NCBI GenBank assembly: GCA_947184155.2
Contig: CAMXCT020001380.1
Coordinates: forward strand, 284,501-348,500
Length of the DNA: 64,000 nt
Direction: 5' to 3'
From: Cladocopium goreaui
Taxonomy: Eukaryota > Sar > Dinophyceae > Suessiales > Symbiodiniaceae
The notes beneath the pieces were generated by a model. It saw only the letters and a list, made by a program, of their open reading frames with translations, was not told the origin of the DNA and did no database searches. The first letter of the stretch is position 1; the number at the start of each line of letters is the position of its first letter. The translations under genes and the position numbers were made by a program. Shown here one piece after another: positions 5,463 to 61,299 of the stretch.

Positions 5463-5642
5463 GTGTGTGTTTCGGATTGAACCCTACCAGGGCATATAAT
5501 TAGCATGAGGTACTGAGCAAGTATAGCTCTGTAGACTAGGCGCAGCACAGACTGGCTGATTGGCCCACAGAGTAAAACAGTGCTTGCAGCCTGGAAGACG
5601 CTCTAGCTGATCCTTTACTGGAAGGACGCTGTTGCCCCTTCA
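5463..5642 (+). mobile_element. Decayed copia LTR remnant with primer-binding site
   Basis: This stretch aligns by eye, with many changes, to the LTR at 16709-16906: GTTTCG near the start, GAGTAAAACA, GGAAGACGC, AGCTGATC and a CCCCTTCA end. At 5645-5656 follows TGGTAGCGGAGC, the same 12 bases that follow the intact LTR, presumably the primer-binding site. It marks the left end of an older copy of the same element family. Confidence 0.7.
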
Positions 5643-5681
5643 AATGGTAGCGGAGCGCAGTTCCAGTGTAAATAGAGCCCA

Positions 5682-7616: not shown

Positions 7617-7704
7617 CAGACCTCGGCTGGTGATGGATGATGTGGGGAAACTTCACCAATCGGTCCGGACCTTACTAACCCATAAGAGCATCCCATGACA
7701 GGTT

Positions 7705-8700
7705 ATGGCAAAACTGGCCCAAGATGGGTATGTCACCATGGAAGACTTGGCAGACCGCTGGGACACAGCGGAGACCGCGAGGACAGCGGCACCAGCGGAG
7801 TTGGAGTTTGCTCGTAATGCTCACATCAATGAGGCACAAGAGAAGTTCATTGCCATGAGAATCTATCAGTGTGTCAGGCGTGCCAAGTCGGCCGTGGAAC
7901 ATTCTCCAGGCAGATATGGGGGCCCCACCTCTCCAGGAAAGTCACCACTGGGGGGGCCACTGGACGTACTCTGTGACAGGAAGCAACTCCTGAAAAACTG
8001 GGATGACGTGGTCAAACTGCCCAGACCTAAGCTGGAATTCCAAGGCTCACACGCCCACCTCAAAAAGCAGTGGAAGTTCTGCTCCCAAGTAGAAGTGGGA
8101 TGGTTCCAGATCAAACACATTGTTTCTGCCCTCCCAGAAATGGACGAGCGTCCAATCAACACAAAAAGGAAGATCACCTTGAACGGATGGGGGAGGGAAG
8201 AAGAGGAAGAAGAACGGAGGGTCCCAACCACCAGGGAACAGCTGAGAGCGCACCTGGTGTTCAGGAACAGGTTGTTGATGTGCCTGTCCAGGACCTGGAG
8301 GAATGGTATACCTTTTTCTGGGGAAAAGACACTGCAGACCGGAAACCAGCTCCCAGCGAGCAGTGCTACTGTATGCTGAGAGAAACGCATGGAGAGAGAT
8401 CCACAACAAAGTCTATGAAGGATGCTCCCTCGAAGGCAGACACTCTCTTTTGGCAGAGAGAGGTGTACGAACGGCTCCCCAAACAACAAGACAAGGCCCA
8501 AGGTTCTAAAGGAACCAGCCAGACTTCCAAGGGGAAGGGCAAATCCAAGCCGACATGGTCACCGGCTCAGACGCAATGGTCCAAAGGCAAACAGTCCCAA
8601 AAAGGGAAGCCTTCAAAAGGGACATCCAAGGGAAAGGATTCCTCCTGGCCAAAGAATTGGGCACCGTCCACCGGGGGGTATGCAGTACTGCCGGGATCAC
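7705..8700 (+). pseudogene. gag-like region of second retroelement
   Basis: Frame 1 reads KLAQDGYVTMEDLADRW at its start and continues to about 8290 (KRKITLNGWGREEEEEER, EQLRAHLVFRNRLLMC). The sense then passes to another frame (DLEEWYTFFWGKD from about 8290) and to a third (TLFWQREVYERLP near 8440). After that comes a Lys/Ser/Gly-rich linker, KGTSQTSKGKGKSK. Because the pieces are continuous when the frame changes, this is one ancestral protein with indels. A nucleocapsid-like role is inferred from position and basic composition. Confidence 0.6.
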
Positions 8701-16437: not shown

Positions 16438-16605
16438 ATGGCTCCCATGGTGACACTGTGGTAGTACCAGTACCCGGACTAGGCAGGGCCAAGTTTGATG
16501 TTGCTGCCTTTTGTTATTCTTATTGTGAAATGCTACCCAGCGAACCGTTGCATATGTAAGAAAATAGTGGTTGGAACAGTCTGGAAAAATGAAAAATAGT
16601 TTTTT

Positions 16606-16708
16606 ACGAAAGCTAGCGTCAGCTAGCTGGAGTCTTCTTGCTTTAGCAAGTATTCCGGGGGCTGCTCAAGGACATCACGTGATTTTTCACGCGAAAGGGG
16701 GGGACCCC
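16606..16708 (+). repeat. CGAAAGCTAG-type dispersed repeat, good copy
   Basis: ACGAAAGCTAGCGTCAGCTA, then CTTGCTTTAGCAAGTATTC and a GGACATCACGTGATTTTTC palindrome, ending GCGAAAGGG. A ~90% similar copy is at 32702-32805. The large copia element is inserted right at the end of this copy, in its G/C homopolymer. Confidence 0.75.
16704..16708. repeat. Target-site duplication, left (ACCCC)
   Basis: ACCCC immediately before the 5' LTR is repeated at 32390-32394 immediately after the 3' LTR: a 5 bp duplication, as usual for Ty1/copia integration. The site is C-rich, so some of the match could be chance. Confidence 0.75.
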
Positions 16709-16906
16709 TGTTTTTGTTTCGACCTAATACCTACATAGGTACATGCATGAGTATTGAGCACATTTATATGCGCCCTCAAGGCTCAAGAGGTATATAGAGT
16801 AACCCTGTAGACAAGCACAGACCGGCAACAGGCTGAGTAAAACAAGTGCTGTCATTGGGGAAGACGCCTTAGCTGATCTTGAAGTAGACGCTAGGGCCCC
16901 TCTTCA
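16709..16906 (+). mobile_element. 5' LTR of large copia element
   Basis: 198 bp, starts TG and ends CA. Differs from the 3' LTR (32191-32389) by one C indel (GCGCCC versus GCGCCCC) and one A/G change (CACAGACC versus CACGGACC). A TATATAGAGTAA box near 16790 could be the promoter. The closeness of the two LTRs points to recent insertion. Confidence 0.95.
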
Positions 16907-16908
16907 AG

Positions 16909-16920
16909 TGGTAGCGGAGC
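16909..16920 (+). promoter_or_regulatory. Primer-binding site
   Basis: TGGTAGCGGAGC begins two bases after the LTR. It starts TGGTA as expected for pairing to a tRNA 3' end; an initiator-Met tRNA is the usual copia primer and is compatible, but the tRNA is inferred. The same 12 bases follow the old LTR remnant at 5645-5656. Confidence 0.75.
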
Positions 16921-16963: not shown

Positions 16964-19711
16964 ATGGCAAGCCATGGCTATGATGATGATGACTTCGACA
17001 TTGTCGATGCAAATGAATGGAACCAATATGACTCTTATGCAATGAGAAGAGCACCCCAGCAGACACAGATTCATATGACGCAACAAATGACCACAAAGGT
17101 AGCTCCAGCATATGATGGGAGAACCAGCTTCTTTGCTTTTGAGGATGCAATCGATGACTGGTGTGACATTACGGAGTTAGAACCAGAGAAACGTGGTCCA
17201 GCCTTGCGCAATAGACTGGAAGGAGATGCTCAACAATACAAGAGACTATTGGATAGAGAAATGCTCAGGGATCCCTATGAAGGAGTAGCTTATTTCAAAA
17301 GACTTCTACGACCTCATTTTATCAAAGGTGCCCAGAACGTGTTCTTATACCGTTTCATGCAGTTCATGAAGTTCAATAGAGGAACCATGGATCTTCAGAA
17401 GTGGATGACTAGATTTCAACTCACTGGCAATAGACTTATTGAGTCTTGGATGAATTTACTTCCAGAAGTAACAGTGACTAGTCCTGAAGCAATCCTGTTT
17501 GTTCAGCAACGACGTCAAGAACATGAACGAGATCAACAAGAGAGAGCTGATGTAGCAGCAGCCTCAGGAACACCCCATGTACCTGTTCCTTGGTCAGATG
17601 AACTGGCACTAGCGGCATTCAGACGATTTCAGGAAAATCGTAGACAAGTACAGCGACAAGCATTCCCACTGGGTGAAAATTTGCTAGCATTGATTTTTGT
17701 AAGTCTAGCTGACCTGAGTCAAGATCAGAGAAATACACTCACAAGTATCATGACACATCGTGGACGAACCCTCGATCAATACAACATTCAAGAACTACGT
17801 GACCTGTTTTTGGAAATGTTTTGCACTACCAAAACAGCAGTTGACAATCCATTGATGCAACCCTCTGGCATGGCACAGAGAAGATCTTTCCTCGTACTGG
17901 ATGAAGGTGAATTAGAAGGAACCGACGGCTATTGGGCCGAAGATGAAGAAGACGGCGCAGAAGGATTCCTGGATGCTTTAGAAGATGTTTTCTGGGTTTA
18001 TGATGACGCCAACTTCACATGGTATCAGAGAAGGTTCCAAGGCAAATACATCAGACGAGGCAAAGGTAAAGGAAAGAGAAAAGGAAAAGGAAAAGGCAGA
18101 GGAGGACGAAGGTTCTTCCGATCAAGAAAAGGAAAAGGCCGAGGTAAAGGAAGAAGAAAAGGCCGTGCTCACATGGTGAGTGAAGAAGGTTATGAAGAAG
18201 ATTGGCAAGAAGATGAATGGAATGAAAACTATGACGGCTATTGGGCCGATGATCAAACCTGGAATGAAGGCTATTGGGCCTATGATGATTCATACTACAT
18301 GGATGAGTATGGATACTTCCAGAGGAAAGGAAAAGGAAAAGGAAAAGGAAAAGGAAAGAAAGGCAAGAAAGGCAAGGATGATGATGGCAAAGGAGGAAAG
18401 CCAGGAGATGGAAAAGGCAAGTCGAACTACGTTCAACCTCAGACCACATCAGTTCCTGCCATACAGAATCAACAAACACAACAAGCTCATTATTCTTCTG
18501 CTGCATCAAGTTCTGGTCATGGTTTCTTTGCATTTGGAAGAACTGACCCATTACGTGTTGATGTTGCAGAGACAGAGCCAGCACGTGTTGATGTTTTGAC
18601 ATCCACGTATGAACAACAAGAAGTACAACGACGCACTCGTCGTGGAGGACAGAACCAACGTGATGCAACAGCACATCAAAACAGGAAGGAGATGAAAAGA
18701 TTCCCTGTTCTGGTTGGAGAAGTTGATGCACTTCGACAAGGTGTACAACGACGTCCAGCTCGTGTGCCCAGGCAAGTTGGTCTTCAAGAAGGTGAGGCTT
18801 CATGGAAGCCATTGGCAAAAGGCACATCATTGTTTTCATATGGATGCTCTACAGAGATAGAGGAACCATCACAGCAGAGTGCTTTTTCATTTCATACTGT
18901 ACAAACTGATCTGGCATGTGAGAATGGACTAGCTTTTCACACAGAGAATTCTGCACCACCAACTGTGTGTATTCTAGATCTTGGATGCACAAGAGCTATG
19001 GGCTCTCGACGAGCAGTTGAAGCATTTTGCAGATATGTTGACTCACATCCCAACAGTGGACTCTGGTATGAAATTCAGCCAACAAGTTCAAGATTCTTCT
19101 TTGCAAATTCACAACAATCAAAATGTACTGAGAAGCTCGTGATATTCATGTATGATCATGGATGGAACACTCAGTTTACAGAATTCCACATTGTCGAAGA
19201 AGGTGATGTCCCATTGTTGATGTCACTTCCACAGATGAGAAACCTTGGATTTCAATTTGAACTTACTCCAGAGAAGGCTTATTTGTCCTGTGCACGTATT
19301 GGCATGAGAAAAATAGTTTTGAGGACAGCCATCAGTACTCATCTCATTCTCGACCTACAAGATGTAGCATGGTACATGAGCCAAGTTCATTTCAAGACTC
19401 CTCAAGTCAAGAGTTTCTTCTCACAACACGATCACTTTGAGTACAGCCAGATTGCTGTCAAACAAGATGTTCATGAAGAAGAAGCTTTGGTGACTGGTGA
19501 CTATTGGCAAGTGGATCCACTACGTCGTGAACTCATCAGGCACCACAAGGACAAGAGAATGAATTTACATGAGATGACTCGATCAGAGAAAACTCCAATT
19601 CCAAAAGATCAACTTCTAGATGAGAGAGAGACACACATGGAATTCCAGAAGAGCAAGAAGAAGGTTCTTCACAAGGACAACTGGCGCACAGAGAAGGAAG
19701 AGGTTTTCTGA
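16964..19711 (+). CDS. copia ORF1: Gag and aspartic protease
   Basis: 915 aa from ATG 16964 (MASHGYDDD), the first ATG after the PBS. Residues about 1-170 form the conserved gag core (DAIDDWCDITELEPEK, FLYRFMQFMKFNRG). About 360-400 are Lys/Arg/Gly-rich (RRGGRRFFRSR type), presumably the RNA-binding part, since no CCHC knuckle is visible. Then come acidic Trp/Tyr-rich repeats (YWADDQTWNEGYWAYDD) and a Lys/Gly tract. Near the C terminus ILDLGCT supplies the protease Asp (D672, D-L-G instead of D-T-G), followed by a PLLMSLPQM region. The ORF ends at TGA 19709-19711 and overlaps ORF2 by 92 nt in the +1 frame, so integrase and RT must come from a +1 shift or separate initiation. Confidence 0.93.
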   Translation: MASHGYDDDDFDIVDANEWNQYDSYAMRRAPQQTQIHMTQQMTTKVAPAYDGRTSFFAFEDAIDDWCDITELEPEKRGPALRNRLEGDAQQYKRLLDREMLRDPYEGVAYFKRLLRPHFIKGAQNVFLYRFMQFMKFNRGTMDLQKWMTRFQLTGNRLIESWMNLLPEVTVTSPEAILFVQQRRQEHERDQQERADVAAASGTPHVPVPWSDELALAAFRRFQENRRQVQRQAFPLGENLLALIFVSLADLSQDQRNTLTSIMTHRGRTLDQYNIQELRDLFLEMFCTTKTAVDNPLMQPSGMAQRRSFLVLDEGELEGTDGYWAEDEEDGAEGFLDALEDVFWVYDDANFTWYQRRFQGKYIRRGKGKGKRKGKGKGRGGRRFFRSRKGKGRGKGRRKGRAHMVSEEGYEEDWQEDEWNENYDGYWADDQTWNEGYWAYDDSYYMDEYGYFQRKGKGKGKGKGKKGKKGKDDDGKGGKPGDGKGKSNYVQPQTTSVPAIQNQQTQQAHYSSAASSSGHGFFAFGRTDPLRVDVAETEPARVDVLTSTYEQQEVQRRTRRGGQNQRDATAHQNRKEMKRFPVLVGEVDALRQGVQRRPARVPRQVGLQEGEASWKPLAKGTSLFSYGCSTEIEEPSQQSAFSFHTVQTDLACENGLAFHTENSAPPTVCILDLGCTRAMGSRRAVEAFCRYVDSHPNSGLWYEIQPTSSRFFFANSQQSKCTEKLVIFMYDHGWNTQFTEFHIVEEGDVPLLMSLPQMRNLGFQFELTPEKAYLSCARIGMRKIVLRTAISTHLILDLQDVAWYMSQVHFKTPQVKSFFSQHDHFEYSQIAVKQDVHEEEALVTGDYWQVDPLRRELIRHHKDKRMNLHEMTRSEKTPIPKDQLLDERETHMEFQKSKKKVLHKDNWRTEKEEVF

Positions 19712-22700
19712 ACAGAGTGAAGAGTTCTGGAAGGGCAAGACCATCTACAAGATCAAGGAGGACTACGTGATCCCAGATGACATTGTCAGAAGTGACATTG
19801 ATCGTGCAAGGCCCTTTCGTGGAAACATTGATGATCTTTTTCACCCTGAGTCAGCCTCTTCAGTGCCATCAGGTGTACAGAAGAAGAAGCCAAGCTCCTT
19901 AAAGAAGGAGGAAGGCAAACCGATTTCAAATGGACCAGGCTCGAAAAAGATTGAGGTAGGTCCACCTGCAGCCAAAAGACACGTAGGTAAGCAGAAACCT
20001 CAGGTTGTCGATGACTCTCAATCAGGTTCATCAAGAAAGAAGGTTGTTGTCTCCTATCCCAAGCTTGATGAGGAAGATGAACTGGACATAAGAGCTAGGG
20101 AGTTAGGTCTGGACAAAGTTGATTCAGATGAACTTCAAGTCATTGAACCAAAACATTCTGCACCTGCGCGCCACCGTGGTAAGCAAGATTCAGAAAGTCA
20201 AGTTGAGAAACTAGGTAGTGATGCTCTTGAGCCTAGGCGAGTTTCAATTCCACTGCCTGGTAGTGAAGTGCAAGCCATGACACCAGCATACAGAAAGATG
20301 CTCAGGAAACTGGAGGATAGTGTGGAACTTTACAAACTTCACATTAAACACTATCACATGTCTCCTACTCAATTCAGACGAAGGACTTCCATGTTAGGAC
20401 TTCCTGACTCTGTCTATGAGAAGTATGATGAAATGTACAACAAGTGTCGTGTGTGTAGTACTTCCATTGCACCACCGCCGCGAGCCAGAATTTCAGGCAT
20501 ACGATCCACCAACTTTGGAGATGTTATCTTTGTTGATCATGCTGAAATTCAGTTGAGGAAGAACAAGTACATGGTGTTGCTTGTTCTTGATGGTGCAACC
20601 AACTTACTTTGGGCTACGGCACAAAACTCACTGAACAACAAGGAGACCATTCAGGCTCTAAGGTTGTGGACTGATGAACATAACTGTATGCCGAAAGCCA
20701 TCGTAGGTGATGAAGCATTCTTTCAAGAAGACTTTCTGACTTATTACCGAACTCATGGTATCAAGGAATGTCCCTGTGGTTCAAGAACCCCATGGCCTAA
20801 CAGAGCTGAATCAGCTGTCAGACTTTTCAAACGACAATGGCAAATCATGTCCAAGAACCTTGAAGATGATAGGTTCAGAGGAATTACCATTAGAGAAGCT
20901 GTGAAGCGTACTGTTTGGGCCAGAAACACTCAACTCACTGTTAGTGGTTATTCTCCTTTGGAAATTGCCACTGGTAGAAGACCACCAGATCTTCTGGATA
21001 TTGAGACTTCTGATCCTGCTCAACTTAGTGTTGATCCTTTACCTGAAGACAAAACACAACTCGAGTTGCAAAGGTTAGCACTGAGGGCACATCAGGAAGC
21101 CAGACAAGCTGCTGACCTCAGACATGACATGGCCAAACGAACAATGCCATCAGATGGACCTTACAAACCAGGTGACAAGGTTTTCGTTTGGAGTTCCCCT
21201 GTCAATGCTAATGCTATTGCTTCAAAGGCATGGAAGAAGGAAAGATGGATCAGAGGTACTGTTATCTCTCAAGAAGGTGCTATGGTCAATGTTCATGTTG
21301 ACAACGCAGTCATGCGTGTTAATCAATCGAAGGTGAGACGTGACCATGATGAATGGCATGATGTTGCCGTTCCTGGATTTGACACATCAGAACCTGTTCC
21401 ACTTGCAGTTGAAGATGAAGATGACTATGAACCAGATATCGCTGAATATGCTGAAGCATACTTAGGTGAACAAGCTCACTGGTTTTGTCAAACTGGCAAG
21501 TGTGATGTTGTGGAACTCTTCAGTAGCAACGCTGGTCTTAGTTGGCACATGGCACGATTGAACATGAAGGTTGGTGAACCCATTGACCACAAGCATGGTT
21601 GGAGTTTCAACAGTAAAAAGAAACAAAACCAAGTTTGGAAACAACTTGAGAATCTTGATCCTGAATACGTATTGATCACAAATCCTTCACCAAATTCCTG
21701 GAAATACTTGGTATTCAAGTTTTGCCTTGATGTGATGAAATGGCAAGTTGACCGAGGAAAAGGTTTCTTGGTGATTGCACCACCTGATTCAGGATTTGCT
21801 CAGTTTTTGGCTTGGAAGAAATTTCAGAAGGACAGAATCAAGTATCACATTGGTTGTTTCAACCTTGACATGACAAATTACTGTCGTTGTGATCCTTCAA
21901 TCAAGAACTTGCGTGTGTATTACAATCATGATAAAGACTTTGACATGTTGGAACCACAGCATGCCTTCAGTAGAGAAGGGAAGCTTTGGAATGATCCACA
22001 ATGGAAGGTCTTACCATCTTACTTGTGTTCATTCATTGCGCAGTTCACACAGCTTGTACCTTTGAGGGACATGAGACAGTATTTCTTGTTTGAAGATCTG
22101 TTGGAACATTTTGATGATGGAGCATTGTGCGGCACGTCAATGTTTTTGGACCGTGAACCTGAGTGCTCGTGTTTGTTGCAAGACTTGCATCATATTGAGA
22201 CCTCTATTCCAGTGCCGTTGAAGCACATCCTTCCACAGAGGTTTACCACTCAGTTACTTGTTCAAACACTGAGGAAGATTGATCAGTTGCCAAGGAGTAC
22301 AGAGGTTAGTGTCAGAGAATCAACTGACCCCAGAATCATTGAATTGATTCCTGGACTTCAAGATGTCAGAAAGAAGACATTGCCTCAAATGTACTTTGAA
22401 GATTGCAGTGTGTTCAGAGGAACTTATGGAAGAGTGAATCCTTTGTTTCAACATCCTGAAGATGCTGTCTTACTCATTTGGAAACCTGGTGACTATGATC
22501 ATGTTTACTTCATGTTTGTGTCACAGTTGTATCCACATCATGAACAGTTCAAAATCCATGAATGGAGTATGATCGTCTTTTCACGAGAAACGACTGGTGC
22601 TATCAAAAGGAGAGTTGAAGATCCTCCTAGTTCAAGTAGCACACCACCAAATGGTGACGATCCCATTCATCCAGATCAGCATGGTGATGTTCCACAAAAT

Positions 22701-25700
22701 GATGATGAAATGTTGAGTGGTGATGAACCAGATGATCCTCTGGATGATGATAATCAACCTGATTACAATACTGGACCTGATCCAGGTGATGATGATGATC
22801 AAGAGTACATCATTCCAGATGATTATGGACCACCACCTGATGATGATTTGGATATGCCAGGAATACAGGACTCGGGGGAAACACATCAACCAAGTTCACC
22901 ATCAACTCCGTTTTCCAATCCTGACATTCCAATCGAAGAGATTGCTGATCCTGGACAAGATGACGATTCTCCACCAGGACCTGATCCAACGTCAGAGCCT
23001 ATCAGAGTTCAAAGGAAACAGAGACAGATCTCAACTGATTCTACTGATGCTTTACCAAAGGCAAAGGCAAAGGTGATTATCAAGAGGCCAAAGGTTCAAT
23101 TACCAGGTCATGTACAGCCAATTTCAGTTCCTACTCAGAAACCTCATGATGAAGAAGATGAAGGACCTTCACATGATCCTACTGCCTCAAGTTCACATGA
23201 TAATACAATTCCATTGCCTACTACTACACCAACATCGTTTACGCCAGGTGACTTTGCGCAGCCAGCGCAACAGCAGTCTTCACAAGGAACACCAGAATTG
23301 GTATCATCACAACATGATGATGATGAAACAGAACCATATGAAACAGACGACACTCCTGTTTTGACTGAGGATGACATTGCTCAGCTTCAGGAAGAAGATG
23401 TGGACACTGAACCTTACACATCAGACCACTCTCATTTTGTCAATGTTGATGGTACTGTTTTCGTTCCTTTAGGACCAAAGGTCCAAGCTGCACCTGAGTT
23501 TGGTTCATACGATGTTACTGGATTCAAACAGTTTGAACAGTATCTTGCCAAGAATGGAAAGAAGCAGCCAAAGGCAGAATCAGTTATCACTCAAGAAGTC
23601 TTGAGAAAGTATGCTAAGGAGATCAAACAAGCCAAGCTTGAAGAATTCAGAAGTTTTCTGGATTTCACTGCCATGACTTTCAGAGACAAGAGACGTCATA
23701 AGATTGATAACTATGTCACTGGCAGATGGGTGCTTACCATCAAGGTTGATAAGGATGGACAGTTCAAGAAGTTCAAGGCTAGATGGGTATGTAGAGGCTT
23801 TCAAGATGCTCAAAAGTATGACTTACAGACTGACAGTCCTACTGCTACCAGGTATGGTTTTCGTGTGGCATCTCAGCATGCAGCCTCGATGTACTGGGAT
23901 TTACTCCATTTAGACTTGAAAACTGCCTTCCTTCAGGGGGAAACATACGACTTAGACCGCCGCGTTATCCATGTTCAGTTGCCTACTGACATTGGTTTGC
24001 CTCCTTACTTGGTTGGTTTGTGCACTCGTTCCGTCTATGGACTTGCGGACGCACCACGTAGATGGTGGAACCGCCTTGACAAATTTCTGATTTCGCTTGG
24101 TATTCAACCAACAAGAGCTGACAGGTGTACATATGTATGCTATGATGGTGCTTTTAAGGAGCCAAAACAGGTTAGCTTTGCTGACTCTGAGGCAACAGAA
24201 CCAGCACCTGTGACATACTACGTAAGCTCACAAGACAGTGAGGAAACGCGTGATGAATCCTCCGACATTGCTGAGGAAGTTCATAAGTCTCTTTTGGTTG
24301 AAGAAAGATTGTTTTCAGCTTGCTATCAACAAACCCAAACATGGAAACAGAGGAAAGAGTTCAAGGAGAAGAAGGTTGAAGATTGTGCTTGGACTCCTGT
24401 TGTTGATGAAACTTTGTTGAAGTTTTTGGAATCTGTTGAACACAAGTCTGGTTGGTATCCTTTTGAAAATGGTCATGCTCAAGTTGCTTATCGTGCAAAA
24501 GCTTTGAGAACTCCTGATTCACATTATGATCGAAAGAAGTTTCACTTGAGAACTTCTATTGTGAAGAGGAAAGGAGTTTGGTGGTTGCTTGAGATGAATC
24601 ATGACATGAACAAGGACAATGTTTCCATAAGTTTGGAAGAAGAAGCTGAAGTACTTGTTTCAGTCTTCTTACCTTCAGAGCGTACTTATCTTGCCACGAC
24701 ACCACAGTTGACACCTGAGATTGTTGAACAACTCTTGGAACACTTCATGGACCCTGTGAATGGCAGTAATGCCAAGGGAAGAAAACCTATTGGCATGTGT
24801 TGTTTGCATGTTGACGACTTGTTCATTACTGGAACTCCAGAGTTTCTGGAGAAGTTCAAGAAAGTTGTCAAGTCACAATTCAAGATTGGTCATGAAGATG
24901 TGAATGACTTGATGTTCACTGGTCAACGTGTGAAATGGATCATTGATGAGAAGACCAAGAAGAAATCACACATCACTGTTGAACAATCACTTTGTGTCAG
25001 TGAACTTACTGAGGTTGTCATACCAAAAGGTTTGAAGGACGAAGACAAATGTGACAAGGATCTCCACACTGCCTATAGATCACTCTTAGGTAGTATCAAT
25101 TGGTTACAATCAAGAACTCAATTTCAGTCGTGTTATCAGTTTTCACGTTGTGCTTCTGCTGCTGCTTCCCCCACCATAGGTGATTGCAAAACGCTGAACA
25201 AACTTTGCAGGCAAATTGTAGGTGACCCGATGGAACTGATGTTCTGGCCACTCCAAGGTGATCCAAGATTAGTTGCAATGCCAGATGCAGCGTTTAGGAA
25301 CAACAGCGACAAATCCTCACAGCGCGCGATGGTTATTTTCATGGCTGAACCGAGAAAGGAAAAGAGCAAAAACACCAGAGGTTCTCTCATTTTCTTTGAA
25401 TCTACCAAAATCAAACGAACCACTTTGAGCACAACTGTTGCAGAGTTGTATGCACTCATGAAGTGTTATGGTACATGTCAAATGTTGAGAGGACTGATCA
25501 AGGACATCACTGGACTTTCAAGCGAGATTCATATGAGGACTGATGCAAACAATCTTGTGACTACTGCCAGCACTACTCATGTTCCTGAACAACAAGAGAC
25601 CATTCATATGATTCAGATGCTTAGGAAGGAAGCATGTTCAGGTTCCATTGCTGACTTGTCACATATCAGAACTCAATGGTGTTTAGCCGATTGTTTGACC

Positions 25701-25895
25701 AAGAAGTCTGCCAATCCTCAGAATCTTATTGATGCTGTTCGACAAGGTGTTCTTAAAGAAGTTGATGCTCATCCACCATTCAGATCATTACTGGAACACA
25801 AAGCTTACCTCAGGTCATGGTTGCCAACAGTTTGCAGTCATGTTGATTTCAGACATGATGTATTTCTGTTAGGTGACACCTTGAGGGATTCTTGA
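19620..25895 (+). CDS. copia ORF2: integrase, reverse transcriptase, RNase H
   Basis: Open frame of 2091 codons; the ATG at 19620 lies inside ORF1 and may not be used, since a +1 frameshift would enter this frame near 19709. In order: a His/Cys zinc-binding module (HIKHYH ... KCRVC, about residues 240-280); rve integrase with D306 (FVDHAE), D364 (IVGDEAF) and E397 (NRAESAV); a segment of unknown function (about 620-960); a long acidic Asp/Pro-rich linker (about 1000-1280); RT with D1432 (LDLKTAFL) and D1732-D1733 (LHVDDLF); RNase H with D1889, E1942 (AELYAL) and D1975 (RTDAN), ending in the copia-typical LADCLTK. No inactivating change is seen. Confidence 0.95.
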   Translation: MRERHTWNSRRARRRFFTRTTGAQRRKRFSEQSEEFWKGKTIYKIKEDYVIPDDIVRSDIDRARPFRGNIDDLFHPESASSVPSGVQKKKPSSLKKEEGKPISNGPGSKKIEVGPPAAKRHVGKQKPQVVDDSQSGSSRKKVVVSYPKLDEEDELDIRARELGLDKVDSDELQVIEPKHSAPARHRGKQDSESQVEKLGSDALEPRRVSIPLPGSEVQAMTPAYRKMLRKLEDSVELYKLHIKHYHMSPTQFRRRTSMLGLPDSVYEKYDEMYNKCRVCSTSIAPPPRARISGIRSTNFGDVIFVDHAEIQLRKNKYMVLLVLDGATNLLWATAQNSLNNKETIQALRLWTDEHNCMPKAIVGDEAFFQEDFLTYYRTHGIKECPCGSRTPWPNRAESAVRLFKRQWQIMSKNLEDDRFRGITIREAVKRTVWARNTQLTVSGYSPLEIATGRRPPDLLDIETSDPAQLSVDPLPEDKTQLELQRLALRAHQEARQAADLRHDMAKRTMPSDGPYKPGDKVFVWSSPVNANAIASKAWKKERWIRGTVISQEGAMVNVHVDNAVMRVNQSKVRRDHDEWHDVAVPGFDTSEPVPLAVEDEDDYEPDIAEYAEAYLGEQAHWFCQTGKCDVVELFSSNAGLSWHMARLNMKVGEPIDHKHGWSFNSKKKQNQVWKQLENLDPEYVLITNPSPNSWKYLVFKFCLDVMKWQVDRGKGFLVIAPPDSGFAQFLAWKKFQKDRIKYHIGCFNLDMTNYCRCDPSIKNLRVYYNHDKDFDMLEPQHAFSREGKLWNDPQWKVLPSYLCSFIAQFTQLVPLRDMRQYFLFEDLLEHFDDGALCGTSMFLDREPECSCLLQDLHHIETSIPVPLKHILPQRFTTQLLVQTLRKIDQLPRSTEVSVRESTDPRIIELIPGLQDVRKKTLPQMYFEDCSVFRGTYGRVNPLFQHPEDAVLLIWKPGDYDHVYFMFVSQLYPHHEQFKIHEWSMIVFSRETTGAIKRRVEDPPSSSSTPPNGDDPIHPDQHGDVPQNDDEMLSGDEPDDPLDDDNQPDYNTGPDPGDDDDQEYIIPDDYGPPPDDDLDMPGIQDSGETHQPSSPSTPFSNPDIPIEEIADPGQDDDSPPGPDPTSEPIRVQRKQRQISTDSTDALPKAKAKVIIKRPKVQLPGHVQPISVPTQKPHDEEDEGPSHDPTASSSHDNTIPLPTTTPTSFTPGDFAQPAQQQSSQGTPELVSSQHDDDETEPYETDDTPVLTEDDIAQLQEEDVDTEPYTSDHSHFVNVDGTVFVPLGPKVQAAPEFGSYDVTGFKQFEQYLAKNGKKQPKAESVITQEVLRKYAKEIKQAKLEEFRSFLDFTAMTFRDKRRHKIDNYVTGRWVLTIKVDKDGQFKKFKARWVCRGFQDAQKYDLQTDSPTATRYGFRVASQHAASMYWDLLHLDLKTAFLQGETYDLDRRVIHVQLPTDIGLPPYLVGLCTRSVYGLADAPRRWWNRLDKFLISLGIQPTRADRCTYVCYDGAFKEPKQVSFADSEATEPAPVTYYVSSQDSEETRDESSDIAEEVHKSLLVEERLFSACYQQTQTWKQRKEFKEKKVEDCAWTPVVDETLLKFLESVEHKSGWYPFENGHAQVAYRAKALRTPDSHYDRKKFHLRTSIVKRKGVWWLLEMNHDMNKDNVSISLEEEAEVLVSVFLPSERTYLATTPQLTPEIVEQLLEHFMDPVNGSNAKGRKPIGMCCLHVDDLFITGTPEFLEKFKKVVKSQFKIGHEDVNDLMFTGQRVKWIIDEKTKKKSHITVEQSLCVSELTEVVIPKGLKDEDKCDKDLHTAYRSLLGSINWLQSRTQFQSCYQFSRCASAAASPTIGDCKTLNKLCRQIVGDPMELMFWPLQGDPRLVAMPDAAFRNNSDKSSQRAMVIFMAEPRKEKSKNTRGSLIFFESTKIKRTTLSTTVAELYALMKCYGTCQMLRGLIKDITGLSSEIHMRTDANNLVTTASTTHVPEQQETIHMIQMLRKEACSGSIADLSHIRTQWCLADCLTKKSANPQNLIDAVRQGVLKEVDAHPPFRSLLEHKAYLRSWLPTVCSHVDFRHDVFLLGDTLRDS

Positions 25896-25900: not shown

Positions 25901-25917
25901 TTTTGAATTTGTGCCTG
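25901..25917 (+). repeat. 17 bp direct repeat, left border of cargo module
   Basis: TTTTGAATTTGTGCCTG, five bases after the pol stop, is identical to 32174-32190, which abuts the 3' LTR. Confidence 0.9.
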
Positions 25918-25961: not shown

Positions 25962-28382
25962 ATGTCGAGCTCTAGCCGGTGGAACAGGGCCTCAGCCGCA
26001 GCATCTAGTGATCAGGCACAATCGAACACTCGAGGTCAAGAATATCCTAGATATGATTTTAGTCGAAGACATTCAGCTGATGGATATGCTCTGAGAAGAT
26101 CAGAGGAAATCCCAGCTGACCAATTTCGAACACCATCGACATTACCCAATGAGGATCATTTAGCATTTTGCTATGATTACAGGCGCCAAACAGATTGGTT
26201 TCAGGCTCACGAGCAAGTGAGGAAGAAGAGAGAGCGCAATTTACATACATTGATGGGTCCACACAACATGAGACCAACTGACAGACATGAAATGTTCATG
26301 GACGCAATAGCTTGGATTCTGCACTGGGGAACTAGTCATGGAGAATTTGATGAATCTTTGAAATGGACTTCAAGTTTTCTGAAGTATCTCTGTGGCTTTA
26401 CAACTCAGGCAGAAGAAAACTGGTTTGATGAACGATGCAATGATTTCCACGTGGACATGACTAGCCAACAAAGGAGAAGTTATTATATGTCATGCAGCAA
26501 GAGGCTATCCAATGTGTTGAGACATTGCAGAGACAAAACGTTATTCACTGCCAGTGGAGCTATGAACATTTCTTTACTGTTTGATCAGATGCAAGGAGAC
26601 AATCCAAAGGAATATCACATGTCTGGAGCAGATTTTGCTGCTATGTTACTGTGTAATCCAAAACAACGTTTCTTTGTCGAGATCTCCATGAGATGGCAGT
26701 GGTACCCATATAGCCCAATGGCAGAGTATCCATTCGACGTTCGTCTTGGTGCTTTTCAAGGACATAGCAACCAAGTTGTCGATCCTACTGTGGCACACCA
26801 CCAACTTACATATGATGAGGCTATGAGTTTGGGCTGGATTTTTCATGTCACTGATTACATGAATTTAGATTCCATTCAACAATCAGGCCTGAAGACCTTT
26901 GTGAAAGGAAGTGGAAAAGGCAGAAGGGATGCAGTTCACTTCATGTATCACAATGACAATGGTCAGGGCTACATAAGAATGGCAGAGGGCACGAAGCCTC
27001 CAAGAAACTACAGGCGACCAGTGTACCTCGTGTTGGATCCAAGTTTTATTGTGGACAACCAACTCTATCTGACAAAGAATGGTGTCATTTTATTTCATGG
27101 TGACATTCCTTTCCAGTACCTCCACGTCAAGGAACAACTCCCTACCATTGCATGCAACGTTGTTCATCAAGGACGTGGTCACTCTCTACCTCCATCGGTT
27201 ACAGGTGGTTCATGGCACAGAGACACCACATGGAACCATGTCATGAAGGAGAAAGGTCCAACATTTATTCCTGGACAAGACATTCCTGAGGAAGTCAGAA
27301 TCACAGCATGGGAGTTCATGGGTCAGCAGGTTCCACAAAACTATGGAAGATTGGTTTTTGGTACACCACTATGCAACGAGAATGATTTTGACCCTGTTAT
27401 GGAATCAATCTATGGTGCTGCAGCAGAAAGCTCTCAAGAAAGAGAGGTATCTGCGCATGCTGATGAAACCATGGAAAACCCATATGAACAACCATCAAGA
27501 AGAGGACGCTCTCCAGAAAGAGAGGAACCTCAAGATGTATGGGAGCAACAACGCTCCTCATCAGGATGTCCAGAATCACCACAATATGATGATCCTCAAC
27601 AAGATGCTCAAGACAATCAACAAGAGGAGCCATCAGTGGACGTCCATGATGACCCAATGGGTGAAGAAGCTGTCAACCTCTGGGAAGCAGAAGATCCACC
27701 AGATGATATCGAAGACCCTGTTGTAGAACAGGCTACCAAAAGTTCAATTTCTGCATCGAATCCCTGGGTCCTGTATGAGGCAGGTATTGTTTGTGCAAGA
27801 GAAGAGAGCGGTGAACTCATCAAGAACTCCTCAGGAGAAAAAGTGATAGTTCTGCGTGAATGGAACCTACTACTCTCTTCACAAAAGATAGCACTTCGTA
27901 GACAATCGATCACTCGCTCAGACTGGGAGAAGTTACCATGGACAGGACATCTATGCTTACTCTTCACAAGAGCTTGGGAGATTGGACGCATGTTGGCACA
28001 CTTCCATCGAGAAAGAAACATTGCAGCCATGGAAGGTTACATGGACTCTTGTCGACGACATTGGACAGACTGGATGCGAGGTCAAGTTGCCCCAACAGGT
28101 TGGGAAGACAGACACAGTATCAGCAGAGACGAATGGAGAGAGAAGTTCTTGCTATACGAAAGAGACTTAGCAATACAGAAGGACATGGAGTATCTCTCAG
28201 AAGCAGTCTTTGTCTTTTACACCAAGCATCTTGATCAGTTCATTAGAGAGAACGACAAACTCTGGGGAGATTTCTGCAAGAGAAAGAAGGACCGTGATGG
28301 TAACATTTTGGATGCACTGGAGTTGAGTACTCATGGGTATGACATGACTATCCAAGGAATTACAGTTCCCATGTCATCCTAG
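25962..28382 (+). CDS. copia ORF3: Tpt1/KptA-like RNA 2'-phosphotransferase domain protein
   Basis: 806 aa from the ATG at 25962 (MSSSSRWN). The frame is open further upstream to 25911, but with no earlier ATG. Residues about 179-390 carry the Tpt1/KptA signatures in order: SKRLSNVLRH (the S-K-x-L-S-x-x-L-R-H motif with its Arg-His pair), VRLGAFQGHS (R-A-x-Q-G-H-S motif), FHVTDYMNLDSIQQSGL (H-G-T and helix), DAVHF (H-V-H-x motif) and NGVILFHGDIPFQYL near the end. Tpt1 enzymes remove an RNA 2'-phosphate by transferring it to NAD+, forming ADP-ribose 1'',2''-cyclic phosphate, after tRNA splicing. The ~180 N-terminal residues and ~400 C-terminal residues (acidic middle, then a Trp-rich helical part) are not recognised. 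Activity is inferred. The ORF is followed 32 nt later by ORF4. Confidence 0.82.
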   Translation: MSSSSRWNRASAAASSDQAQSNTRGQEYPRYDFSRRHSADGYALRRSEEIPADQFRTPSTLPNEDHLAFCYDYRRQTDWFQAHEQVRKKRERNLHTLMGPHNMRPTDRHEMFMDAIAWILHWGTSHGEFDESLKWTSSFLKYLCGFTTQAEENWFDERCNDFHVDMTSQQRRSYYMSCSKRLSNVLRHCRDKTLFTASGAMNISLLFDQMQGDNPKEYHMSGADFAAMLLCNPKQRFFVEISMRWQWYPYSPMAEYPFDVRLGAFQGHSNQVVDPTVAHHQLTYDEAMSLGWIFHVTDYMNLDSIQQSGLKTFVKGSGKGRRDAVHFMYHNDNGQGYIRMAEGTKPPRNYRRPVYLVLDPSFIVDNQLYLTKNGVILFHGDIPFQYLHVKEQLPTIACNVVHQGRGHSLPPSVTGGSWHRDTTWNHVMKEKGPTFIPGQDIPEEVRITAWEFMGQQVPQNYGRLVFGTPLCNENDFDPVMESIYGAAAESSQEREVSAHADETMENPYEQPSRRGRSPEREEPQDVWEQQRSSSGCPESPQYDDPQQDAQDNQQEEPSVDVHDDPMGEEAVNLWEAEDPPDDIEDPVVEQATKSSISASNPWVLYEAGIVCAREESGELIKNSSGEKVIVLREWNLLLSSQKIALRRQSITRSDWEKLPWTGHLCLLFTRAWEIGRMLAHFHRERNIAAMEGYMDSCRRHWTDWMRGQVAPTGWEDRHSISRDEWREKFLLYERDLAIQKDMEYLSEAVFVFYTKHLDQFIRENDKLWGDFCKRKKDRDGNILDALELSTHGYDMTIQGITVPMSS

Positions 28383-28414: not shown

Positions 28415-31400
28415 ATGATGATCATGGCAATCGATCTGTATGAAGATGAAGCACCTGCCAACTTTTGCCATTTTACCATCTTTGCTCTCAACAAGCTTCG
28501 ACAATTTGTGGATAGCAGAAAGGAGTTGACTGCTCAGTCTTACAGATTCTTTGTTGAACATGCCTACAACCAATTCTTTCAGCATGAAGCATTCCATCAA
28601 TCTGCAAGAGCAAGGACAAAGGTCAGGGAATGTGGTTCAGGTGACTTCCACACATCTACAAAGCTCGATGGCTACATCTGGGTAGCAGGAAAAGACAAGA
28701 TTGCTCACATCCCAGAATCAGAGCAACAGAATGTGGACATGGAAGATCACGATGATGATGATGCTGAAGATGATTTGGAGTTTTTGCCAAGACTACAAGT
28801 TTTTGTTAGGCCGCAGGAGGAAAAAGCATCAGGCTCTCATGAAAGAGAGGAAGAAGGTGTAGGCTCTCAAGAAAGAGAGGAAACACAACCGCAACAAGAA
28901 GATGAAATATTACCAGATGCAAATCCTCGAAGAAATCTTGAAGACCGACAGGGACTGTTTTTAGTCAGGCAACTCAAACCAGAGCACAGGAGGATCCTAC
29001 AGGATATTACACTCGCAGGCCAATCAATCCTCACAGGAGATGATCTTGAAGGAGGTCAACCCCTTGAACGTGGTGACATAAGCTACTTCTCATTATGGTT
29101 GATGATGTCGGCATTATCAGATGCTTCTTTTTCAACATTTATGGAGCAGTATGCACCTATGATGGGTTATGAGATCTCCTACGACAAGTATCATGAGTTC
29201 AAACTGGATATTGACCAAGTTCTCAAGGACAATGAACACCTCAGCGCAGAAAATTTCTTTGGAGCAGAGGATCCTGATTTGGTGGACGATGATCCAAACA
29301 CTCCTCTTCCAGACCTTCAAGGACAGAGCGCTGGTGATCCTGAGTACAAGCACACTATTGAAAGTTTGAACATTGAGGACAAGCATATCATTTTGGAAAC
29401 TGATGATGACAAATTGGTTGAGTGTACATTGAAATGGATCAGTATGTGCAATCAGAATGTTCAACAAAAGATCAAGGACAGTTTTGTCAAACCAGAAGAA
29501 CGACAAGAGAAAGAAGAGGATGAAGATGAGGAGATTGCTGTCGAAGAAGAAGAAGAAGAAAAAGACACACAGGAGCCACATGTCCCAGCTGAAAGCTCTT
29601 TAGAGAAAGAGGAATCAGCTCCACCTGAACGCTCCTCAGAAAAGGAGGAATCAGGGGAGAAGAAAACAGACATTCAAGATGATGAGACAGCTCCTGAAGT
29701 GAAACCTGCAATTCGACTTTACTATGGTCAAGATATCACTGGAAACGAAGATGATTCAGTTTTTCGAAAATTGAAGGATTGTTTTTCAGATGGTTACCAT
29801 GGTGAATGGGCAGGATTTTACAATAAAGGTTATCCAGCGTCTTCGAAGCATCGACACATGTTTTGGCATGTCAAGTACAGGAAGACCATGTCTCCACATC
29901 AAGATTATTGGTACCATCTTACAGATGACCAGTTGATGGTTGAGTACATTGCCAGACACAAGGATCAGAATCCACAACTAGAATTACAAGAACTCAATCA
30001 GCACATTGAATATGGTTGTAGTGATCCTAGGATGCATCCTCTTCATCAAGACAAAGCAGAATCATCCTCAAAAGAAGCAGAAAAGAGGATTGATGACGAT
30101 TTTGGAAATCTCACAAAGGTACTCCAAGATTACGTTGAGGACCACAAGGTCTTACCTTACTGTATGATCTTGCATAGCTTGGCTTACAGATATTTAGGTG
30201 GAGGCCTATCAGACCCAACTTACAAGGATGCCGAATTTCCATACAGATCCTCTCCACAGATAACAGCAATGTTTTGGAATTTGGGAAACTGGTGCAGAAA
30301 CAGATTTGAAAAATGCCCGGTTCCAGAAAGATTTCAACAATTCATTCCACACATTGACTACACTATCGATGAGGATCATGAAAATTTTGATGAAACCAAG
30401 TCACAGTTCAACAATTACTTCATCAATGTCATCAAGAACTTTGGAGGACATCTCTTCATGAATTGTGAAGCTGGTTCATTGTATCCTCACAGAGAAAGAC
30501 TCGACGAGGTTGACTTTAAAACTTGCTTCAATGACTATCATGACTTGATGGTGGCAGCTCGCCTTGGAAAGGATGGCTATATCAAGCAAATTGCTGGATA
30601 TCAAACAGATGACAACGACACACGAGTTCGACAAGTCTCATGGGCAATCTTCGAAGTATCTTGGGGAAAGACAAAGGACCGAGATACAAATGAGATTGTT
30701 GACTTGACAAGAGCTAGGATGAGGATGACACGTGTGTGCGTTTATCACGTCGGACAGAAGTATGCATCAGACTCTGCTGGGATTGTTGGTGAATGCTTAG
30801 CTGTTATGGCTTTTGAGTGTGCCAGATATCAAGTTGACTTCATCGCAGGTGATGGAAACAAGGCATGCTATTACAGCACACCAAAATCTCCAGGCGTCCC
30901 TACATATCAACACAGCCTAATCCAATTCTGGATTAACAGAATGGTAGGTGTTGCAACACAAGCCATGCGCAAGTATTTTGATTCATCTTGCCCTCCAATC
31001 AGGGTCAAGCATTTCATTTCTTGCAGTTATCGTGACTTGGATTTTCTTGCAACACACTTGGATGGCATTACAACAGCAACATACACCGACGAGCTCATGA
31101 ACAAGACAAATGGGAAAGGTGATTGTTGTATGTTAACAGTTGTTGAGTGGGGTCATTCACGTTTGATGTGTCAGGAACACCTTGAAGACTACGAAGACGA
31201 AGATCACATGAACTATGTGGGTGAATTTTACTTCAAGGTAAATGAAACTTGCTTGCATGGTGATCACAACATCTTCATGGTTGCCCCAAATGATCGTGAT
31301 GCCCATAATCCAATTCTTATCCATCTTGATCCTTCTGATATGTCGTGGAATGAACGACATCATTACAAACATTCTTTCAAGAAGAAGCAGTATTCAGATA

Positions 31401-31534
31401 CAAGGAAGGAAAGACAGAAGGAGAAAAAGAGAAAGGCATATGAAGATCAAGCATCAACGTATCAGGGCAACGTTAGTTGGGGTGGATCCTCATCTTCTTC
31501 GTCCAGACCATGGAGAACAAGCTTTTGGCTATGA
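28415..31534 (+). CDS. copia ORF4: EEP-like (exonuclease/endonuclease/phosphatase fold) protein
   Basis: 1039 aa from ATG 28415. The N-terminal ~600 residues have no recognised domain and include Glu-rich tracts (about 365-425). Residues about 615-975 show the motif series of the EEP fold: FWNLGNW (metal-binding Asn, 620-626), MNCEAGSLY (metal Glu, 682-690), RVCVYHVG (active-site His, 773-780), DFIAGDGN (catalytic Asp and Asn as in G-D-x-N, 808-815) and NDRDAHNPILIHL (final Asp/His, as in S-D-H-x-P, 959-971). EEP enzymes include AP endonucleases, LINE endonucleases, deadenylases and 2'-phosphodiesterases. The C terminus is basic then Ser-rich. No domain of this type belongs to normal copia elements, which integrate by rve integrase. 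Substrate unknown. Confidence 0.72.
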   Translation: MMIMAIDLYEDEAPANFCHFTIFALNKLRQFVDSRKELTAQSYRFFVEHAYNQFFQHEAFHQSARARTKVRECGSGDFHTSTKLDGYIWVAGKDKIAHIPESEQQNVDMEDHDDDDAEDDLEFLPRLQVFVRPQEEKASGSHEREEEGVGSQEREETQPQQEDEILPDANPRRNLEDRQGLFLVRQLKPEHRRILQDITLAGQSILTGDDLEGGQPLERGDISYFSLWLMMSALSDASFSTFMEQYAPMMGYEISYDKYHEFKLDIDQVLKDNEHLSAENFFGAEDPDLVDDDPNTPLPDLQGQSAGDPEYKHTIESLNIEDKHIILETDDDKLVECTLKWISMCNQNVQQKIKDSFVKPEERQEKEEDEDEEIAVEEEEEEKDTQEPHVPAESSLEKEESAPPERSSEKEESGEKKTDIQDDETAPEVKPAIRLYYGQDITGNEDDSVFRKLKDCFSDGYHGEWAGFYNKGYPASSKHRHMFWHVKYRKTMSPHQDYWYHLTDDQLMVEYIARHKDQNPQLELQELNQHIEYGCSDPRMHPLHQDKAESSSKEAEKRIDDDFGNLTKVLQDYVEDHKVLPYCMILHSLAYRYLGGGLSDPTYKDAEFPYRSSPQITAMFWNLGNWCRNRFEKCPVPERFQQFIPHIDYTIDEDHENFDETKSQFNNYFINVIKNFGGHLFMNCEAGSLYPHRERLDEVDFKTCFNDYHDLMVAARLGKDGYIKQIAGYQTDDNDTRVRQVSWAIFEVSWGKTKDRDTNEIVDLTRARMRMTRVCVYHVGQKYASDSAGIVGECLAVMAFECARYQVDFIAGDGNKACYYSTPKSPGVPTYQHSLIQFWINRMVGVATQAMRKYFDSSCPPIRVKHFISCSYRDLDFLATHLDGITTATYTDELMNKTNGKGDCCMLTVVEWGHSRLMCQEHLEDYEDEDHMNYVGEFYFKVNETCLHGDHNIFMVAPNDRDAHNPILIHLDPSDMSWNERHHYKHSFKKKQYSDTRKERQKEKKRKAYEDQASTYQGNVSWGGSSSSSSRPWRTSFWL

Positions 31535-32190
31535 GTGAGTGTAGACTTCTTTAAATGAAGATAACACAGCATGAGAGGCCGTGTACAGTTTTTCTGTGCA
31601 TCAACTTATTTCACACAGATGGCATATACTCTTTTAAATAGAGATAATGCCACAAGTGTCTGAACTTCAATTTAATGTAAAATAGATGCTCTTGTAAATA
31701 GAGATACTATACACATTTATCTCCATGGACCATCCTGCGAGCAGACCCTTCCGAATGGAGCGAACTCCAAAAATTACCAACTTCGATTTCAGTCCATTGT
31801 TTGCTTGAATGAGCAACTTTGGAGATCCGCTATTTCCGTTTATTTCGTGATTTGGTCAATTGTTTTTCGTATGACCTGAATTTCTGAATCTTGCAAACCC
31901 GAACTTTTCAATTCGAACCTTCACCGGTAGAGCGAGGCATTTTGCCTATGGAGAGACCGTGCGCGAAGCACCATTGGTCACTACTGGAAAAATTAGCGAA
32001 TCCGCTGTTCTTTTTCGACATGTCCTTAGGACATTCGCTGCTTTCACGTGTTTTTCAATTCGAAGCCACTGCGTAACTCCGGTTTCTTTTGCTATTTGCC
32101 ATTGTGTAGAGAAGTCAGGAAGATACTCTTAATACCAATTGGGTACGGCAAGGCGTAGTGCTCTACTCATTGCTTTTGAATTTGTGCCTG
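31535..32190 (+). other. 3' untranslated region of copia element
   Basis: No ORF. Three near-repeats with an AAATAGAGATA-like core lie at about 31545 (CTTTAAATGAAGATAAC), 31632 (CTTTTAAATAGAGATAAT) and 31686 (CTTGTAAATAGAGATACT). They are imperfect palindromes. The sequence just before the LTR is the 17 bp repeat, not an obvious polypurine tract. Confidence 0.6.
32174..32190 (+). repeat. 17 bp direct repeat, right border of cargo module
   Basis: TTTTGAATTTGTGCCTG, identical to 25901-25917, directly before the TG of the 3' LTR. Confidence 0.9.
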
Positions 32191-32389
32191 TGTTTTTGTT
32201 TCGACCTAATACCTACATAGGTACATGCATGAGTATTGAGCACATTTATATGCGCCCCTCAAGGCTCAAGAGGTATATAGAGTAACCCTGTAGACAAGCA
32301 CGGACCGGCAACAGGCTGAGTAAAACAAGTGCTGTCATTGGGGAAGACGCCTTAGCTGATCTTGAAGTAGACGCTAGGGCCCCTCTTCA
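32191..32389 (+). mobile_element. 3' LTR of large copia element
   Basis: 199 bp, TG...CA, two differences from the 5' LTR. Followed by ACCCC (32390-32394), the right copy of the target duplication. Confidence 0.95.
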
Positions 32390-32399
32390 ACCCCCCCCT

Positions 32400-32660: not shown

Positions 32661-32701
32661 TTCAATTACATTTTATCATTATTGGCAATCATTGTCATTA
32701 T

Positions 32702-32805
32702 CACGAAAGCTAGCGTCAGCTCGCTAGAGTCTTCTTGCTTTAGCACGTATTCCGGGGCTCCCCAAGGACATCACGTGATTTTTCCCGCGAAAGGGCCCCC
32801 CCCTG
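32702..32805 (+). repeat. CGAAAGCTAG-type dispersed repeat, second good copy
   Basis: About 90% like 16606-16708 and also ending in GCGAAAGGG plus a C run. Confidence 0.75.
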
Positions 32806-61291: not shown

Positions 61292-61299
61292 TGAATAAG

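What the first reader, a model, noticed from the sequence alone, without database searches (positions are those of the whole stretch)
25962..28382. Retrotransposon-encoded Tpt1/KptA-like RNA 2'-phosphotransferase
The signature motifs occur in the right order over ~210 residues: SKRLSNVLRH, RLGAFQGHS, FHVTD, VHF and NGVILFHG. The frame is intact in a young element, so it is probably under selection. A mobile element with this enzyme might modify or repair host tRNA or its own RNA (a 2'-phosphate, or an ADP-ribosylation-like reaction on RNA ends), or counter a host RNA-ligase or nicking defence.
Basis: partly seen in the sequence, partly recalled or inferred. Interest (0 to 1): 0.92.

Follow-up and report, generated by a model that had tools for sequence, protein, structure and literature searches.

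The report
Retrotransposon carrying an RNA-end enzyme pair
A young, abundant jumping gene in a dinoflagellate carries a Tpt1-like (RNA 2'-phosphate / ADP-ribosyl) enzyme domain next to a phosphoesterase-fold protein, and other kinds of jumping gene in the same genome carry Tpt1-like domains too, which suggests that these elements manage nucleic-acid ends for themselves.

Summary
ORF2 (25962-28382) matches Pfam PF01885, Tpt1/KptA (37.9 bits, cut-off 26); the 19 PDB matches of its model at E 0.001 or less are all Tpt1/KptA. It lies inside a copia-type LTR element whose 199/200-nt LTRs (16709-16907, 32191-32390) are nearly identical. The genome gave 1,046 ORF2 candidates; the 56 scored are 96-100% identical. 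pN/pS of the domain is 0.24 over 13 copies.

Best reading: a nucleic-acid-end processing cassette, chemistry untested. My paper searches listed no report of it.

The parts
16709..16907 (+). 5' LTR (199 nt)
   Evidence: aligned to 32191-32390 with one substitution and one 1-nt indel
16909..16920 (+). primer-binding-site-like stretch; resemblance to the complement of an initiator tRNA-Met 3' end is recalled, not searched
   Evidence: sequence one base after the 5' LTR
16964..19711 (+). gag-like ORF, 915 aa
   Evidence: ORF list; no Pfam match; role inferred from position
19620..25895 (+). pol ORF, 2,091 aa, copia-type reverse transcriptase (RVT_2 over aa 1366-1511); integrase-like D, D, E motifs at aa 304-394 by eye
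   Evidence: RVT_2 E 8.2e-18; motif positions
25901..25917 (+). inner copy of the 17-nt repeat TTTTGAATTTGTGCCTG, just after pol
   Evidence: 14 of 14 loci, 11 exact and 3 with one change
25962..28382 (+). ORF2, 806 aa, with the Tpt1/KptA-like domain
26490..27095 (+). PF01885 match, aa 177-378; R187-H188, G263 in place of the third tetrad Arg, H295 and T297 (NAD site), R322
28415..31534 (+). ORF3, 1,039 aa; in one frame with ORF2 in many relatives, the frame broken in this copy
30176..31339 (+). EEP-fold region of ORF3 (model residues 159-546 of the fragment that starts at 29702)
32174..32190 (+). outer copy of the 17-nt repeat, directly before the 3' LTR
   Evidence: window and 9 of 10 other LTR copies, one of the 9 with one change
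32191..32390 (+). 3' LTR (200 nt)

Best explanation
A copia-type LTR retrotransposon of a dinoflagellate carries, between pol and the 3' LTR, an accessory cassette for nucleic-acid ends. Its first part is a Tpt1/KptA-fold domain that probably uses NAD+ (ORF2); its second part is an EEP-fold, probably metal-dependent phosphoesterase (ORF3). In about half of the scored copies the two lie in one long frame. Most likely the pair processes phosphorylated ends of the element's own RNA, its primer tRNA or its cDNA, after host cleavage or during reverse transcription: the EEP part trims or dephosphorylates an end and the Tpt1-like part reacts a phosphate with NAD+. Because the third tetrad arginine, which published mutants link mainly to step 2, is Gly here, the domain in this lineage is probably not an efficient classical 2'-phosphotransferase; it may favour leaving ADP-ribose on the end, or have a changed substrate. 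Shown: element, domain, predicted folds, residue states, pN/pS, linkage of the two parts. Inferred: expression, NAD+ use, substrate and purpose. The identity of the domain alone I hold at about 0.95; the confidence given is for the whole mechanism.
Against: No expression or activity data. The corresponding mutant of human TRPT1 (R86A) did not ADP-ribosylate 5'-phosphorylated RNA (PMC6582358, passages), so loss of this Arg may disable rather than redirect. R261, two residues upstream, might take over. P0016, P0031, P0041 and L016 in the same family have Arg at the third position. The ORF2 model has pLDDT under 50 at 267-273 and 315-320, close to G263 and R322. ORF3 has no Pfam match, its five models range from mean pLDDT 68.9 down to 45.0, and EEP enzymes have many substrates, lipids included. 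29 of 56 copies do not have a frame of 1,850 aa, the window copy among them.
Confidence: 0.43

Rival explanations
1. Classical Tpt1 function: the domain removes 2'-phosphates left by a plant- or fungal-type RNA ligase pathway of the host, so the element repairs its own RNA or host tRNA; the EEP part opens 2',3'-cyclic phosphates as ANGEL2 does.
Against: Third tetrad Arg is Gly in 58 of 63 readable relatives and 13 of 13 copies; [quoted passage not shown] I did not search for a host RNA ligase of that type.
Confidence: 0.2
2. Catalytically inactive fold: the domain binds RNA or nucleotides or plays a structural part in the particle.
For: Third Arg replaced in this family and in class B; first Arg-His not kept in class C.
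Against: Other tetrad and NAD-site residues conserved; complete tetrad in L016 and apparently in L018; EEP residues of the partner conserved.
Confidence: 0.17
3. Counter-defence or effector enzyme: the domain ADP-ribosylates a host protein or nucleic acid to blunt silencing of the element.
For: DarT-type ARTs follow Tpt1 in the fold list (8baq E 0.013); viral ARTs are linked to host conflict (PMC9503650, passages).
Against: Tpt1 matches rank clearly above all other ARTs; RNA-lobe residues such as R187 and H188 are kept. No target known.
Confidence: 0.12
4. Passenger gene: captured host sequence without a function for the element.
For: Retroelements can pick up host sequence; the shared ORF2/ORF3 frame is broken in this copy.
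Against: ORF2 full length in 56 of 56 scored copies, internal stop in 4; dN/dS 0.195 against the diverged L016; relatives down to 29% identity; Tpt1 domains in several element types.
Confidence: 0.03

Closest known systems
Tpt1/KptA/TRPT1 RNA 2'-phosphotransferases (PF01885; CthTpt1 6e3a, mouse 7yw2)
   Same: Profile match, two-lobe fold, Arg-His at the first tetrad positions, Arg at the fourth, His and Thr of the NAD-binding HGT motif.
   Different: Third tetrad Arg is Gly in most of this family; HGT is HVT; the domain lies in an 806-aa protein of a retrotransposon, joined to an EEP-fold partner.
DNMT-bearing retrotransposons of Symbiodinium (SymbioLINE-Dnmt, SymbioDIRS-Dnmt3; PMC5890265, passages seen)
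   Same: Dinoflagellate retrotransposons of several kinds that carry a captured nucleic-acid-modifying enzyme under purifying selection.
   Different: Those carry cytosine methyltransferases in LINE and DIRS elements; here a Tpt1-like domain, in this window in a copia-type element with an EEP partner.
KptA in phages, a few eukaryotic DNA viruses and RNA-virus polyproteins (PMC9503650, passages seen)
   Same: A KptA domain carried by a selfish element, proposed there for RNA repair.
   Different: Those are viruses, not retrotransposons; [quoted passage not shown]
EEP enzymes Nocturnin, PDE12, CCR4/CNOT6L, ANGEL2, TDP2, LINE endonucleases
   Same: Predicted fold of ORF3 and positions of Asn, Glu, Asp-x-Asn, Asp and His.
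   Different: 7-13% identity in the rows shown; no Pfam match; joined to a Tpt1-like domain.

Membership tests
Tpt1/KptA RNA 2'-phosphotransferase | match to PF01885 over the curated cut-off | tested here: met
   37.9 bits, cut-off 26
Tpt1/KptA RNA 2'-phosphotransferase | two-lobe Tpt1 fold | tested here: met
Tpt1/KptA RNA 2'-phosphotransferase | complete Arg-His-Arg-Arg tetrad | tested here: not met
   R187, H188, G263, R322 by alignment; Gly in 58 of 63 readable relatives. L016 of the same family has the complete tetrad.
Tpt1/KptA RNA 2'-phosphotransferase | His and Thr of the HGT NAD-binding motif | tested here: met
   H295 and T297 kept in 90% or more of 40 rows and 13 of 13 copies; the Gly between them is Val
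Tpt1/KptA RNA 2'-phosphotransferase | NAD+-dependent removal of a 2'-phosphate | not testable with these tools
   needs a purified protein
Ty1/copia LTR retrotransposon | flanking LTRs | tested here: met
   further pairs
Ty1/copia LTR retrotransposon | copia-type reverse transcriptase | tested here: met
   RVT_2 65.3 bits, cut-off 31.6
Ty1/copia LTR retrotransposon | integrase before reverse transcriptase in pol | tested here: inconclusive
   D, D, E motifs by eye at pol aa 304-394; no integrase match in Pfam
Ty1/copia LTR retrotransposon | target-site duplication | tested here: inconclusive
   ACCCC before the 5' LTR, CCCCC after the 3' LTR, in C runs
EEP (endonuclease/exonuclease/phosphatase) superfamily | EEP fold | tested here: met
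EEP (endonuclease/exonuclease/phosphatase) superfamily | catalytic Asn, Glu, Asp-x-Asn, Asp, His | tested here: met
   N193 18, E256 20, D384 20, N386 20, D445 17, H485 16 of 20 rows; the list of catalytic residues is recalled
EEP (endonuclease/exonuclease/phosphatase) superfamily | sequence-profile match to a Pfam EEP family | tested here: inconclusive
   no such match for ORF3 or for ORF3 fragment, P0076, P0094, P0100, P0069

The most novel reading that the evidence does not exclude
Dinoflagellate retroelements of several unrelated types have each recruited Tpt1 domains and, by losing part of the tetrad, turned an RNA-healing enzyme into a nucleic-acid ADP-ribosylating one. In the copia family the enzyme and an EEP-fold partner form an exchangeable write-and-trim cassette, flanked by a 17-nt repeat, that marks or protects element RNA or cDNA ends: a retroelement end-capping system not previously described.
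Probability: 0.2. Interest if true: 0.93.

Novelty: new variant of a known kind. Interest (0 to 1): 0.82.

Why it matters
What Tpt1/KptA does in organisms without fungal-type tRNA splicing is an open question, said so in PMC6333775 and PMC6582358 (passages). Here a dinoflagellate genome yields over a thousand first-look candidates of one mobile family (1,046, of which 56 were scored) and Tpt1 domains in other element types, with natural variants at a catalytic residue and, in this family, a linked partner protein. That makes the question testable: purify natural variants and ask what end each one makes. If true, it would add NAD+-based end chemistry to the tool-kit of retrotransposons, next to the captured methyltransferases.

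Tried and rejected
Chance motif match: rejected by profile, own HMM and fold. A host gene beside the element: rejected, because ORF2 lies between the LTRs and sits at the same offset from the LTR start on C2458 (9,254) and C646 (9,255) as in the window (9,253). Direct descent from this host's own Tpt1 (L001): family A is not nested in the dinoflagellate clade on the tree, but AU tests reject neither that grouping (p 0.156) nor one origin of A+B+C (p 0.303); long branches leave the origins unresolved. PDB sequence search with ORF2 gave 8 weak, unrelated matches and no Tpt1. Viral contigs: 6 pattern matches, none encodes a relative. A spliced-leader relic near the element: only fuzzy matches.

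Counts and what was left out. The first pN/pS run used a wrong frame for the RNase H tail and was redone; there I made no test against 1 and no correction for shared ancestry. My regular expressions for the first and fourth tetrad residues presuppose the Arg, so I do not use those counts. For the third position the expression read 66 of 74 family proteins; 3 of these matched at a wrong place (P0002, P0034, P0069) and were dropped, leaving 63; for cellular proteins it read 112 of the 120 listed of 143 found. Of the 74 ORF2 relatives 26 went into and 38 into; of the 120 cellular ones 25 went into the tree. C319 (second LTR 16,383 away) is not counted as a pair, since the sequence before that LTR differs. 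Papers: searches listed nothing on Tpt1/KptA or another ART carried by a retrotransposon; one search returned none; only the listed rows were seen, not every matching paper, and only passages of the four papers cited.

Full report

The element. Direct repeats of 199 and 200 nt at 16709-16907 and 32191-32390 differ by one substitution and one 1-nt indel. Between them lie a gag-like ORF, a pol ORF with copia-type RVT_2 (E 8.2e-18), ORF2 and ORF3. A primer-binding-site-like stretch follows the first repeat (likeness to an initiator tRNA complement is recalled). The genome that holds the window has 1.17 Gb. It is a dinoflagellate, of or near the Symbiodiniaceae: its own Tpt1 is 82% identical to a Durusdinium trenchii protein (P0111) and to one labelled Skav (P0109), a label that I recall as Symbiodinium (Fugacium) kawagutii. 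Searching it with ORF2 gave 1,046 candidates, of which 56 were scored: 56 of 56 cover residues 1-805 at 96-100% identity, and 4 of 56 have an internal stop. The LTR gave 973 candidates, of which 40 were scored, at 99-100%. Three further LTR pairs have spacings of 15,492, 15,496 and 15,498 bases, against 15,482 in the window; on two of those contigs, C2458 and C646, ORF2 starts 9,254 and 9,255 bases after the LTR start, against 9,253 in the window.

The active site. In CthTpt1 the tetrad is R18, H19, R68, R121 (passages of PMC6333775). By alignment the window has R187, H188, G263 and R322. R187, H188, H295, T297 and R322 are each kept in 90% or more of 40 rows. The third position is Gly in 58 of 63 readable relatives, Arg in 3, Ala in 1 and Ser in 1; among cellular Tpt1 proteins it is Arg in 107 of 112 readable, Lys in 3, Gly in 1 and Cys in 1. 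All 13 genomic copies compared have Gly. An Arg two residues upstream (R261) is present in 40 of the 58 Gly rows; 17 rows of the FIGC/YIGC kind have Phe or Tyr there and one has His. P0016, P0031 and P0041, and L016 in this same genome, have Arg at both places; on the tree they form one group inside the family (98/98). [quoted passage not shown]

Selection. Among 13 copies (window plus L025-L036) pN/pS is 0.24 for the Tpt1 segment, 0.26 for RT, 0.46 for the ORF2 N-terminal part and 0.009 for the pol tail, with no stop in these four segments. Between the window and L016, dN/dS is 0.195 over 232 codons, at a synonymous distance of 1.13. I made no formal test against 1 and no correction for shared ancestry.

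The cassette behaves as a unit. Against L016, a relative in the same genome, pol from 23.5 to 26.0 kb is 90-97% identical, and from there ORF2/ORF3 falls to 55-82% (54-82% for L017); upstream of 23.25 kb the two align poorly, so there is a second step there. Synonymous distance tells the same: 0.28 in the pol tail, 1.13 in the Tpt1 segment. This suggests exchange of the cassette between element lineages. The 17-mer TTTTGAATTTGTGCCTG lies at the pol/ORF2 junction (14 of 14 loci, 11 exact, 3 with one change) and again directly before the 3' LTR (window, and 9 of 10 other LTR copies, one of the 9 with one change). So the cassette is flanked by a short direct repeat whose outer copy sits where the plus-strand primer is expected. 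Template switching between the two is my inference.

Other retroelements. PF01885 gave 1,496 first-look candidates in this genome; 150 were scored, all above the cut-off. One is the host's own Tpt1 (L001) and two lie on bacterial-looking contigs (L002, L003, and the alignment). I read 21 further loci at 19 places (L005 and L021, and L006 and L022, overlap). L016 and L017 belong to the window's family. Class B (L004-L008, L020-L024): long frames with, by eye, an RNase H-like part before the Tpt1 domain and, in L024, a weak phage-integrase match after it (E 7e-4, 19.8 bits, cut-off 27.1; none in L020), so DIRS-like at best guess; the third tetrad residue is Ala in the five rows aligned. Class C (L009-L015, L019): a copia-like polyprotein (RVT_2 in L011 at E 0.0064, below its cut-off), frames in that hit group up to 4,039 aa; in the six rows aligned the first Arg-His is not kept while the third Arg is. 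Class D (L018): an RT-like ORF (RVT_1 E 2e-4, below its cut-off), a Tpt1 ORF with an apparently complete tetrad, and a PLD-like ORF (PF13091, E 3e-9) in a row. On the tree A, B and C are each one group at 100/99; A with C has weak support, 80/56. The tests do not decide how many captures there were, but the element backbones appear to differ, so the domain has probably moved between element types.

Mechanism. The cassette most likely acts on phosphorylated nucleic-acid ends; which end, and whether ADP-ribose stays on it, is open. The altered tetrad argues against a plain 2'-phosphotransferase in this lineage; conserved NAD-site residues argue against a dead fold. Since a defining feature was tested and not met, I do not file ORF2 as a 2'-phosphotransferase: it is a Tpt1-like domain that may work like one in part.

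Known or new. The nearest precedents are the DNMT-bearing retrotransposons of Symbiodinium (PMC5890265, passages) and viral KptA (PMC9503650, passages). The paper searches listed no Tpt1 or other ART carried by a retrotransposon (only the listed rows seen). Most subscription journals are missing from that library, so this does not prove absence.

Noticed in passing
L018 (G000:C691:137000-146500), 1951-8204 +: RT-like ORF, Tpt1 ORF and PLD-like ORF (PF13091, E 3e-9) in a row: a further element type that pairs Tpt1 with a phosphodiesterase-type fold.
   Followed up: partly
L004-L008, L020-L024: DIRS-like elements (best guess) with a Tpt1 domain inside a long polyprotein; third tetrad residue Ala in the five rows aligned.
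   Followed up: partly
L009-L015, L019: Copia-like polyprotein with a Tpt1 domain that lacks the first Arg-His but keeps the third Arg.
   Followed up: partly
window 25901-25917 and 32174-32190: A 17-nt direct repeat flanks the ORF2-ORF3 cassette; the outer copy abuts the 3' LTR in 9 of 10 other copies looked at. Role unknown.
   Followed up: partly
window 16601-16660 and 32698-32757: A 60-nt repeat (92% identical) lies outside both LTRs (family D12).
   Followed up: no
window 6187-6873 +: ORF that by eye resembles part of the gag-like ORF 16964-19711, perhaps a fragment of a related element.
   Followed up: no
window 50735-51583 +: ORF with a piece of glycosyl hydrolase family 7 (E 2.8e-21) and two CBM_1 cellulose-binding domains (E 8.2e-25).
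   Followed up: no
window 58432-62427: Three ORFs (58432-59388 -, 60272-61213 -, 61753-62427 +) without a Pfam match; the middle one looks integrase-like by eye, perhaps a polinton-like remnant.
   Followed up: no
G000:C1 (7.4 Mb) and G000:C5523: The two strongest Tpt1 hits after the host's own look bacterial (L002, L003), so the assembly seems to hold bacterial contigs.
   Followed up: no
window pol ORF, about aa 650-770: Stretch that by eye recalls a DNA-methyltransferase-like domain; no Pfam match there; not tested further.
   Followed up: no
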